Source: Streptomyces sp. NBC_01304
GTDB lineage: Bacteria; Actinomycetota; Actinomycetes; Streptomycetales; Streptomycetaceae
DNA length: 64,000 nt
Assembly: GCF_035975855.1 (NCBI RefSeq)
Contig: NZ_CP109055.1
Location: 3,968,001-4,032,000, forward strand
Direction of reading: 5' to 3'
The position numbers were made by a program, and so were the translations under genes. Under the pieces are notes generated by a model. The model did no database searches, was not told where the DNA came from, and saw only the letters and a program-made list of their open reading frames with translations. Positions 7,824 to 62,997 of this stretch are shown one piece after another (within the stretch, counting starts at the first letter, position 1; every line of letters starts with the position of its first letter).

Positions 7824-8444
7824 ATGAAGCGCAACATCGTCATCGCCACCGTGGCCGCGGCAGCACTCGTCGCCGGCGGCTCGGCCTTCGCCTTCGCGGG
7901 TGACGACGAGACGCCGGCGAAGGCGCAGTCGAACGTGGCGCTGAAGGTGCAGGACGACGACCGGGACGACGTCGACGACCACAACGACCGCGACGACAAG
8001 CGCGACGACCGGGACGAGCGCCCCAGCGGCAAGGTGACCGCCGCCGACGCGATCGCCGCGGCCCTGAAGCACACCCCGGGCACGGCCGTCTCAGCCGACC
8101 TGGACGACGACGGCGTCTGGGACGTGGACGTGGCCAAGTCCGACGGCACGGAGTACGGCGTCGAGGTCGACCCGGCCACCGGCAAGGTGCTGCGGGCGGA
8201 CCGCGAGGACGACGACGACCGCGATGAGCTGGCCGCGTTGGGCGGGGCGAAGACCTCGGCCCGGGATGCGGCACTGGCCGCTGCCGCGCGGGGCGTGGTG
8301 ACTTCGGTCGACCTTGACGACGATCGCGGCGCCGCCGCGTGGGAGGTCGAGACGGTGAAGGGCGACTTCAAGGTCGACCTCAAGTCGGGCAAGGTCACGG
8401 CGGACCTGGACGACCAGGACGACCGTGATGGCGACGACGACTAA
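7824..8444 (+). CDS. Secreted PepSY-domain protein, Asp-rich
   Basis: A 206-residue exported protein. I choose ATG 7824 (MKRNIVIATVAAAALVAGGS) because it gives a normal signal peptide and has GGGAGG upstream. The mature protein opens with an Asp/Arg-rich linker (DDDRDDVDDHNDRDDKRDD), then a PepSY domain (GKVTAADAIAAALKHTPG to VDPATGKVLRADRED), a second weaker PepSY-like unit and an acidic tail ending DDQDDRDGDDD. The segment DLDDDGVWDVDV fits a DxDxDG calcium-loop pattern. PepSY proteins are often targets of adjacent OmpR systems. Cation binding at the cell surface is plausible but inferred. Confidence 0.88.
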   Translation: MKRNIVIATVAAAALVAGGSAFAFAGDDETPAKAQSNVALKVQDDDRDDVDDHNDRDDKRDDRDERPSGKVTAADAIAAALKHTPGTAVSADLDDDGVWDVDVAKSDGTEYGVEVDPATGKVLRADREDDDDRDELAALGGAKTSARDAALAAAARGVVTSVDLDDDRGAAAWEVETVKGDFKVDLKSGKVTADLDDQDDRDGDDD

Positions 8445-8452
8445 GACTTTTT

Positions 8453-8597
8453 CCCCACCCCGCCCCTTCCCGAAATCCTGCGGAGCTGTGTCCTCAAACG
8501 TCGGACGGGCTGATTCATCTCTGATGAATCAGCCCGTCCGACGTTTGAGGACATCTTTGAAGCCGGCGGCAGCCTTTCGGGAAGGGGCGGGGTGGGG
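8453..8597. repeat. Nested inverted-repeat element, copy A
   Basis: Outer arms 8453-8475 and 8575-8597 are 23 bp and perfectly complementary (CCCCACCCCGCCCC side). Inner arms 8489-8519 and 8523-8553 are 31 bp and perfect, with a 3-nt loop (TCT). Between the stems is an asymmetric spacer: TCCTGCGGAGCTG on one side and a 21-nt GCCGGCGGCAGCC-type segment on the other. The element fills the gap between convergent PepSY and meaB genes and would fold in transcripts from either strand, so it can act as a bidirectional terminator. Copies B and C lie at 36042-36221 and 47756-47910. Confidence 0.95.
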
Positions 8598-8603
8598 TGA
8601 AAA

Positions 8604-35978: not shown

Positions 35979-36041
35979 CCCTTCGGGGCCCCAGCTGAAC
36001 GAAGCCGGATCGACGGGTACGCCCCCTGTCGGTCCGGCTTC

Positions 36042-36221
36042 TTTTCTTCCCCGCCCCGCCCCTTCCCGTAAGGCTGGCGCCGGCTGAAAAGACTGTCCTC
36101 AAACGCCGGACGGGCTGATTCATCAAGCTCTGATGAATCAGCCCGTCCGGCGTTTGAGGACACCGCCCGAAGGGCGGAAAGCTCCGCAGGATTTCGGGAA
36201 GGGGCGGGGTGGGGAAGAAAA
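36042..36221. repeat. Nested inverted-repeat element, copy B
   Basis: Outer arms 36042-36068 and 36195-36221 are 27 bp with a single G-T type pair. Inner arms 36094-36125 and 36131-36162 are perfect over 32 bp with a 5-nt loop (AGCTC). The asymmetric spacer is reversed relative to copy A and carries an extra small hairpin (CCGCCCGAAGGGCGG). It fills the gap between the convergent chitinase and DUF2550 genes. In both inner arms the base pair at the CGCCGGACG position is C-G, where copy A has T-A. Confidence 0.95.
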
Positions 36222-47755: not shown

Positions 47756-47910
47756 CCCCACCCCGCCCCTTCCCGTAAGGCTGCCGCCGGCTTCAAAGAC
47801 TGTCCTCAAACGCCGGACGGGCTGATTCATCGAGGCCGGCCTCGATGAATCAGCCCGTCCGGCGTTTGAGGACACAGCTCCGCAGGATTTCGGGAAGGGG
47901 CGGGGTGGGG
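47756..47910. repeat. Nested inverted-repeat element, copy C
   Basis: Outer arms 47756-47775 and 47891-47910 are 20 bp and perfect. The inner palindrome is perfect over 37 bp per arm (47801-47837 with 47838-47874) with no loop; the centre reads CGAGGCCGGCCTCG. The spacer orientation is the same as copy B and opposite to copy A. It lies between two minus-strand genes: after the phosphatase stop (47922) and before the SHMT start (47712), so it may end the phosphatase operon. Confidence 0.95.
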
Positions 47911-51562: not shown

Positions 51563-51666
51563 GGGGTTCTCCTAGTTTCGGGAGGGCTCCGGGTCGCCTT
51601 CGCGGATTGCGGGGGCGTGAACCGGGGCCGACGTACCAGTCTGCCAGGACCGGCCGTATCTCCCAA

Positions 51667-62925: not shown

Positions 62926-62997
62926 TGCCCCCGGCAGGATTCGAACCTGCGCACACGGCTCCGGAGGCCGTTGCTCTATCCCCTGAGCTACGGGGGC
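62926..62997 (-). tRNA. tRNA-Arg (anticodon CCG)
   Basis: A 72-nt cloverleaf: acceptor GCCCCCG/CGGGGGC, D stem GCTC/GAGC, anticodon stem ACGGC/GCCGT with loop CTCCGGA (anticodon CCG), T stem GCAGG/CCTGC with TTCGAAT loop, discriminator A. CCA is not encoded. It reads CGG, a common Arg codon here. Such tRNA-Arg genes are used as attachment sites by actinobacterial integrative elements; no integrase is present here. Confidence 0.97.

What the first reader, a model, noticed from the sequence alone, without database searches (positions are those of the whole stretch)
8453..8597. Dispersed nested inverted-repeat element with a compensated base change
Three copies (A 8453-8597, B 36042-36221, C 47756-47910) share the same plan: 20-27 bp outer arms, an asymmetric spacer, and a perfect 31-37 bp inner palindrome. 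In the inner arms copy A has T-A where B and C have C-G (CGTCGG versus CGCCGG), changed on both arms, so pairing is conserved while sequence is not. Loops differ freely (3, 5 and 0 nt). This argues that the hairpin or cruciform itself is under selection or is maintained by a copying process. I recall similar sequences being common in Streptomyces but know no assigned function.
Basis: partly seen in the sequence, partly recalled or inferred. Interest (0 to 1): 0.75.

Follow-up and report, generated by a model that had tools for sequence, protein, structure and literature searches.

The report
Streptomyces nested-hairpin repeat at gene ends
A nested DNA hairpin has multiplied through the core of this Streptomyces chromosome and mostly sits directly after the stop codons of genes, where it may act as a two-way gene-end signal whose matching arms are kept identical by a copying slip during DNA replication.

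Summary
A, B and C belong to a dispersed, modular element family. The core arm occurs 502 times in this genome (279+223, up to 3 mismatches; control 0), is patchy in the genus (111 of 150 genomes, 0-493 copies) and was not found in 110 genomes of other genera of the class.

In 2.36 Mb sampled there are 82 elements, 44 of them inverted pairs. None lies in the sampled chromosome arms; convergent gaps are enriched. Of 70 outer arms facing a gene 3' end, 53 begin 0-15 nt after the stop codon. Of 14 lying 23-110 nt away, 6 directly follow an intrinsic terminator.

Paired changes exceed shuffles (25 cells v 8.2), but copy A's T-A change is unique among 64 palindromes, and unpaired changes are as many as paired (13 v 13). 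Apex loops occur in both orientations behind the same flanks: arm matching plus spacer inversion is the published signature of template switching, so selection on the hairpin is not required. The two spacer modules of an element are never alike (0 of 55).

Most likely a REP/BIME-like bidirectional 3'-end hairpin; its function is inferred, not shown.

The parts
8453..8472 (+). Copy A, left outer arm CCCCACCCCGCCCCTTCCCG, with 8 nt (T-rich) between it and the stop codon (8442-8444) of a PepSY-domain gene
8473..8488 (+). Copy A, left spacer module (AAATCCTGCGGAGCTG type)
8489..8553 (.). Copy A, inner perfect palindrome, 31-bp arms, 3-nt loop; T-A at 8501/8541 where other copies have C-G
8554..8577 (-). 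Copy A, right spacer module (AAAGGCTGCCGCCGGCTTCAAAGA type when read on the - strand)
8578..8597 (-). Copy A, right outer arm, with 6 nt between it and the 3' end (8604) of the convergent meaB gene
36001..36041 (+). Intrinsic-terminator-like hairpin downstream of a GH18 (chitinase-like) gene; its T-run (36042-36048) directly abuts the outer arm of copy B
36049..36068 (+). Copy B, left outer arm
36094..36162 (.). Copy B, inner perfect palindrome, 32-bp arms, 5-nt loop
36195..36214 (-). Copy B, right outer arm, followed by an A-rich 11 nt and the 3' end (36226) of the convergent DUF2550 gene
47756..47775 (+). Copy C, left outer arm, facing the start of the SHMT (glyA) gene on the - strand
47801..47874 (.). 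Copy C, inner perfect palindrome, 37-bp arms, no loop
47891..47910 (-). Copy C, right outer arm, 11 nt from the 3' end (47922) of a low-molecular-weight phosphatase gene on the - strand; C lies between tandem, not convergent, genes

Best explanation
A, B and C belong to a lineage-amplified family of modular bidirectional 3'-end elements. Plan of one element: stop codon or intrinsic terminator - T-rich linker - C-rich outer arm - spacer module X - core arm - apex - core arm' - spacer module Y' - outer arm' - A-rich linker, with X and Y unlike. SHOWN in the sample: the family, its modular plan, docking at gene 3' ends, absence from the sampled chromosome arms, lineage-specific copy number, paired changes above shuffles, apex orientation independent of the flanks. 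INFERRED: (1) The perfect arms and the paired base changes are produced and repaired by template switching during replication, one arm being copied from the other while the apex is flipped. (2) Unlike spacers are what survives, because two identical halves would make a very long perfect palindrome, which is unstable (recalled). (3) In RNA the element forms a very stable stem just after the stop codon on both strands and most likely works as a U-less two-way terminator or 3'-to-5' exonuclease barrier for the gene(s) it abuts, like REP/BIME hairpins. (4) New copies arise by an unidentified copy-and-replace process that leaves no target duplication.
For: Copies and control. Modular plan. Docking: of 70 outer arms facing a gene 3' end, 53 begin 0-15 nt after the stop codon (distances counted to the first C). 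In convergent gaps the sequence left outside the element has a median of 18 nt (n=14; 11 of 14 are 22 nt or less) versus 81.5 nt for 202 element-free convergent gaps, p=6e-4; in tandem gaps (n=19) stop-to-element is 8 nt versus 74 nt from element to the next start, p=1.5e-4. Where the arm motif lies 23-110 nt from the stop (14 sides), 6 have, by my reading of the folds, a clear intrinsic terminator whose T-run abuts the arm. Convergent enrichment: 29 of 187 gaps versus 44 of 915 others, p=2e-6; 0 of 82 elements in 0.54 Mb of arm sequence, P=6e-10. Pairing. Apex in both orientations in 5 of 10 classes with two or more members; arm homogenisation plus spacer inversion is the reported outcome of template switching (PMC8604942 and PMC8794818, abstracts read). 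Unlike spacers: 0 of 55 similar above 0.7 versus 7.5 expected; 0 of 36 versus 4.9 in the tile-only subset. Fold energies -129 to -146 kcal/mol for the three copies on either strand. Gain in this lineage: B gap 247 nt versus 83, 74 and 9 in three relatives, C gap 209 versus 71 and 71 in two; element-free orthologous gaps differ by a median of 0 nt (197 comparisons pooled over four relatives). Structured U-lacking 3' ends are reported for S. clavuligerus (353 of 1,427 transcript 3' ends; PMC8269248, sections 6 and 11 read). Perfect inverted repeats are reported to peak 50-80 bp after stop codons in Bacteria generally (PMC13155455, passages).
Against: No transcript data for this strain. Polarity is wrong for a classical intrinsic terminator: T-run before and A-run after the hairpin on each strand. 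At 6 of 14 far sides the gene already has its own terminator, so the element is not always needed as one. 22 of 44 pairs lie in tandem gaps and 1 in a divergent gap, copy C among the tandem ones. Compensated changes are few and concentrated (11 of 13 at one column) and equal in number to uncompensated ones. By shuffles, 'further pair types' is not raised (10 versus 11.1, 471 of 500), the outermost pair forms in only 18 of 40 rows, and shuffles do not correct for relatedness. Looser spacer classes put 3 of 44 or 2 of 55 elements as like-spaced; alignment scores found none above 0.3. Exchange of modules between copies could also give both apex orientations. Avoidance of promoters by a selfish element would also give few divergent sites. 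17 of 70 outer arms facing a 3' end are not docked.
Confidence: 0.5

Rival explanations
1. A purely selfish non-autonomous mobile element (MITE or REPIN-like) moved in trans by an unknown transposase; its place at gene ends reflects only where insertion does no harm.
For: Copy number from 0 to 493 among 150 genomes of the genus, own included; absent at B and C in the relatives compared; inverted doublets plus singlets as in REPINs (abstract of PMC3116915).
Against: No target duplication (longest shared word in 20-nt flanks 3.50 versus 3.61 expected, 36 elements). No Y1 transposase match in element-rich G002, G051, G109 and G074; the single one in this genome lies at 362.6 kb with no core arm in its 3.4-kb locus. 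None in the sampled chromosome arms, where insertions are usually tolerated (recalled). No copy found in the plasmid, phage or viral collections. Harmless insertion does not predict docking 0-15 nt after stop codons with little else left in the gap.
Confidence: 0.27
2. A DNA-topology element: cruciform or gyrase-binding site that absorbs supercoils where transcription converges, as proposed for some E. coli BIMEs (recalled).
For: Convergent enrichment; perfect palindromes that could extrude; symmetric plan.
Against: 22 of 44 pairs are between tandem genes; tight docking to the stop codon on one side only in tandem gaps points to a transcript feature.
Confidence: 0.1
3. A 3'-UTR double-stranded RNA element processed by RNase III, regulating mRNA decay of one or both neighbours.
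For: Perfect 31-37 bp hairpins that would be present in RNA of either strand.
Against: No transcript or cleavage data; the asymmetric spacers have no role in such processing that I know of.
Confidence: 0.08
4. Chance or compositional artefact of a GC-rich genome (70% GC in the sample).
For: GC-rich palindromes are common in such genomes (recalled).
Against: 502 near-exact copies against 0 control matches; in the class-wide sample matches only in the window's genus.
Confidence: 0.01

Closest known systems
REP / BIME / REPIN elements (Pseudomonas, Enterobacteria)
   Same: Short dispersed extragenic palindromes, singlets and inverted doublets, lineage-specific amplification, hairpin potential in RNA and ssDNA.
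   Different: No associated RAYT found; two nested stems separated by unlike spacer modules; ends docked to stop codons instead of spread randomly in extragenic space (as the REPIN abstract describes); none in the sampled chromosome arms.
MITEs (miniature inverted-repeat transposable elements)
   Same: Non-coding, terminal inverted repeats, about 150-180 bp, many copies.
   Different: No target duplication, no parental IS found in the part sampled, modular interior, none in the sampled chromosome arms.
U-lacking ('I-shaped') or bidirectional terminators of GC-rich bacteria (HS-U-lack 3' ends of S. clavuligerus, PMC8269248)
   Same: Strong GC-rich stem just after the stop codon, could work on both strands, no U-run after the stem.
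   Different: Much longer (about 160-180 nt, nested) and a sequence family of many copies; termination not demonstrated here.
Template-switch-maintained inverted repeats (PMC8794818, PMC8604942)
   Same: Arms homogenised with apparent compensatory changes; spacer found in both orientations.
   Different: Here a multiplied bacterial repeat family, not single RNA or protein genes; no switch event was observed on a known ancestor.

Membership tests
REPIN | Inverted doublets of a short palindromic unit, singlets also present | tested here: met
   44 inverted pairs and 38 single arms in 2.36 Mb
REPIN | Associated RAYT (Y1/HUH transposase) in the genome, near elements | tested here: not met
   One PF01797 match in this genome, at 362.6 kb; no core arm (up to 5 mismatches) in its locus, one 2-mismatch resemblance to the outer arm. 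No match in element-rich G002, G051, G109, G074; 7 of 16 genomes tested have one, e.g. 7 matches in element-rich G085 but 2 in element-free G025
REPIN | Random spread in extragenic space | tested here: not met
   Docked to stop codons, convergent-enriched, sampled arms empty
MITE | Terminal inverted repeats | tested here: met
   Outer arms on both sides in 36 of 44 pairs
MITE | Target-site duplication | tested here: not met
   36 elements, own 3.50 versus shuffled 3.61; 412 of 500 shuffles at least as high
MITE | Parental IS or transposase with the same ends | tested here: inconclusive
   Only about 22% of the genome was sampled; there 106 of 116 outer-arm hits (up to 1 mismatch) have a core arm within 130 nt, and none of the other 10 was followed up for a transposase
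Intrinsic terminator (canonical) | Stem followed by U-run | tested here: not met
   T-rich 8 nt before each outer arm (59% T), hence A-rich after the element, on each strand
Intrinsic terminator (U-lacking) or 3'-end barrier | Transcript 3' ends at the stem | not testable with these tools
   No RNA data for this strain
Rfam RNA family | Match at gathering score | tested here: not met
   Only a tRNA and an L31 leader in the window; microRNA hits to the three hairpins lie below their gathering scores
Template-switch product | Arm homogenisation with spacer inversion | tested here: met
   met as a pattern only, no event on a known ancestor could be seen

The most novel reading that the evidence does not exclude
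Streptomyces gene ends are colonised by self-repairing terminator cassettes: each lineage assembles its own nested palindrome from a genus-wide module set, copies it into many 3' ends by replacing the native end (no transposase, no target duplication), and keeps its arms perfect by template switching, while the unlike spacers act as a built-in limit on palindrome length. Compensatory base changes, normally read as proof of selected RNA structure, would here be mutational.
Probability: 0.25. Interest if true: 0.78.

Novelty: new variant of a known kind. Interest (0 to 1): 0.58.

Why it matters
It offers many natural replicas in one genome for asking whether compensatory changes come from selection or from template switching. 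It suggests that 3'-end signals of Streptomyces turn over by repeat replacement; at the site of copy A two relatives hold other repeats in the same gap. It gives candidate bidirectional insulators for high-GC hosts. It also warns that covariation alone does not prove a functional RNA.

Tried and rejected
RAYT link: tested and not supported. Target duplications: none. Carriage by phage, plasmid or virus: no match (by blastn with copy C; by an exact 23-mer). Known RNA family: none. G-quadruplex reading of the outer arm (four C-runs): C-run arrays after stop codons occur in 3 of 1133 element-free flanks against 7 of 1133 for G-runs in this genome, and in 8 versus 1 of 369 in other species; too few to claim. 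Ordinary explanation of docking, namely that any Streptomyces hairpin starts there: in element-free gaps the first perfect stem of 8 bp or more starts at a median of 35 nt and 21% start within 17 nt (184 of 891 gaps have one). Errors mended: the first spacer typing was loose and was replaced by alignment scores; an outer-arm index read the wrong column and was recomputed; searches counted the outer arm from its second base and were recomputed, whose figures are used here. The set of 64 palindromes includes 20 beyond the 44 from the tiles, taken from loci chosen by similarity to copy C; the tile-only figures are free of that bias. Gene calls are from my own codon-usage caller, not from an annotation. 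The arm/core border (1.2 and 9.0 Mb) was set after seeing the density table, and the sample over-represents the block around the window. Literature: nine answered library searches listed no paper on this repeat; some lists were capped (20 of 36, 12 of 44, 8 of 26 shown), judged by titles and abstract starts; two were exact sequence strings with no hit. Subscription papers and supplements are not covered.

Full report
What is there. The three copies are at the stated coordinates with perfect inner palindromes of 31, 32 and 37 bp and loops of 3, 5 and 0 nt. The window is G000:C1:3968001-4032000 of a 10.66 Mb contig; named Streptomyces carry meaB proteins up to 97% identical. The 22-nt core arm TCCTCAAACGCCGGACGGGCTG occurs 279 + 223 times in the genome (up to 3 mismatches; reversed-pattern control 0 + 0). 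I sampled 2.36 Mb, about 22% of the genome (115 stretches of 20 kb plus the window: a block around the window and an even grid over the chromosome), and found 82 elements: 44 inverted pairs and 38 single arms; 36 of the 44 pairs have both outer arms.

Anatomy. Read from either end, an element is: T-rich linker (59% T in the 8 nt outside the arm, 19% T at 10-20 nt outside); outer arm CCCC[A/T/G]CCCCGCCCCTTCCCG; a spacer module of 4 to 67 nt; core arm; apex; and the inverse. Outer arms are rarely found without a core: 106 of 116 hits at up to 1 mismatch have one within 130 nt; of the other 10, 7 are one-mismatch matches away from docked 3' ends and 3 are exact and docked. The two spacer modules of one element are never alike: 0 of 55 pairs score above 0.7, expected 7.5; tile-only 0 of 36, expected 4.9, with 2 of 1000 shuffles giving 0. 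Looser classes of 44 or 2 of 55 alike.

Position. Of 70 outer arms that face a gene 3' end, 53 begin 0-15 nt after the stop codon. In 11 of 14 convergent gaps holding an element with both outer arms, at most 22 nt of other sequence remains; the median of 18 nt compares with 81.5 nt for 202 element-free convergent gaps (p=6e-4). In tandem gaps (n=19) the element is 8 nt (median) from the upstream stop and 74 nt from the downstream start (p=1.5e-4). At 14 sides where the arm motif is 23-110 nt from the stop, 6 show a clear intrinsic terminator whose T-run abuts the arm; copy B is one of them (judged from the folds). In the core chromosome 29 of 187 convergent gaps hold a core arm versus 44 of 915 others (p=2e-6), with 5 of 237 divergent ones; 0 of 82 elements lie in 0.54 Mb of arm sequence (P=6e-10). 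Window copies: A lies between a PepSY-domain gene and meaB, B between a GH18 gene and DUF2550 (both convergent), C between a phosphatase gene and glyA (tandem).

Paired changes. On 44 core palindromes from the tiles (40 distinct rows), 96.6% of 1040 cells pair, 25 cells are changed on both sides (shuffles 8.2 +/- 2.1), and covariation is 0.076 (0.041); sliding the partner by 1-3 columns destroys this. Shuffles do not correct for relatedness, one measure (further pair types) is not raised, and the outermost pair forms in only 18 of 40 rows. Outer-arm position 5 takes mostly A, T or G and agrees between arms in 36 of 55 (expected 20.5), tile-only 23 of 36 (expected 12.8; 9 of 20000 shuffles as high). 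In 64 palindromes there are 13 compensated and 13 uncompensated cells of 1408; 11 of the 13 compensated are at one column, and copy A's T-A is seen once.

Why pairing persists. Apex loops that are not self-complementary occur in both orientations behind the same pair of spacer classes in 5 of 10 classes with two or more members (36 classes in all). Arm homogenisation with spacer inversion is what template switching between inverted repeats is reported to do (abstract of PMC8604942), and it has been proposed to create and repair RNA hairpins with apparent compensatory mutations (abstract and opening text of PMC8794818). The unlike spacers fit the known instability of very long perfect palindromes (recalled).

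Spread. Among 150 genomes of the genus, own included, 111 have at least one core arm (up to 2 mismatches), from 0 to 493, with this genome highest. In a class-wide sample of 118 genomes all 6 with matches are of the window's genus (6 of 8 congeners, 0 of 110 others). The exact outer-spacer-core composite occurs 243 times here, 13 times in G085 and not at all in the core-rich G051, G079 and G109 (16 genomes), whose listed apexes differ from those here: lineages have their own combinations. Orthologous gaps compared in relatives lack the core arm (10 comparisons at 5 sites): B 247 nt here versus 83, 74 and 9; C 209 versus 71 and 71; two further sites 106 versus 97 and 143 versus 19. At A the relatives have gaps of 511, 489 and 148 nt; the G124 and G122 sequences, which I read, hold other repeats, the G009 one was not read. 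No target duplication, no RAYT association, no plasmid, phage or viral copy found. A covariance model of the core searched on 80 named meaB loci (998,020 bases) gave 9 strand-wise matches in 5 loci, all within about 300 nt downstream of meaB; the gap 3' of meaB holds a core arm in 9 of 76 species loci versus 2 of 443 other gaps, probably partly by shared descent.

Function. Folding gives -129 to -146 kcal/mol for the three copies on either strand. The place directly after stop codons, the symmetry and the rarity in divergent gaps suit a bidirectional 3'-end element. S. clavuligerus Term-seq describes a class of structured, U-lacking 3' ends (353 of 1,427; PMC8269248, sections 6 and 11 read), and inverted repeats are generally enriched 50-80 bp after bacterial stop codons (PMC13155455, passages). 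Against it, the T-run stands before the stem, not after, and some genes have their own terminator in front. I put 3'-end function at about one half; it is not shown.

Verdict. Real, abundant, lineage-amplified. A new variant of the dispersed-palindrome kind (REP/BIME-like) that fails tested membership criteria of REPINs and MITEs. No paper on it appeared in nine searches of the open library.

Noticed in passing
window 8445-8603 and loci L145-L224 (meaB 3' gap): The gap downstream of meaB holds a core arm in 9 of 76 other-species loci versus 2 of 443 other gaps. In G124 and G122 the same gap holds other repeats, which resemble sequences seen in L205/L216 and in L156.
   Followed up: partly
L148, L154, L171, L192, L194, L205, L209, L216: Other species have long nested inverted repeats in gene 3' gaps (types GCGCAGTTCCCCGCGCCCC, CGCCCCCGCCGCCCC..CCCGTCCC, GGGGTGTCCG and others): 12 of 316 gap sides, being 9 gaps, 7 of them convergent.
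   Followed up: partly
window 51585-51631 (-) and 62926-62997 (-): Rfam L31-Actinobacteria ribosomal protein leader and a tRNA.
   Followed up: no
L035 19171, L042 1705, L045 11200, L047 14076, L079 14593, L110 7072: A second single-arm series close to TCCTCAAACGCCGGAGGGGCTGA, mostly preceded by a G-rich/C-rich hairpin and without the C-rich outer arm; an older or separate relative of the core arm.
   Followed up: no
L040 2024, L104 14327, L066 11761: Single arms followed by a truncated second arm, two of them (L040, L104) ending within about 20 nt of the neighbouring stop codon: possible partial fold-back products.
   Followed up: no
outer arms of the sampled copies: The outer arm carries four C-runs with 1-2 nt gaps, so the opposite strand has G-quadruplex potential; the main varying column is a gap position.
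   Followed up: partly
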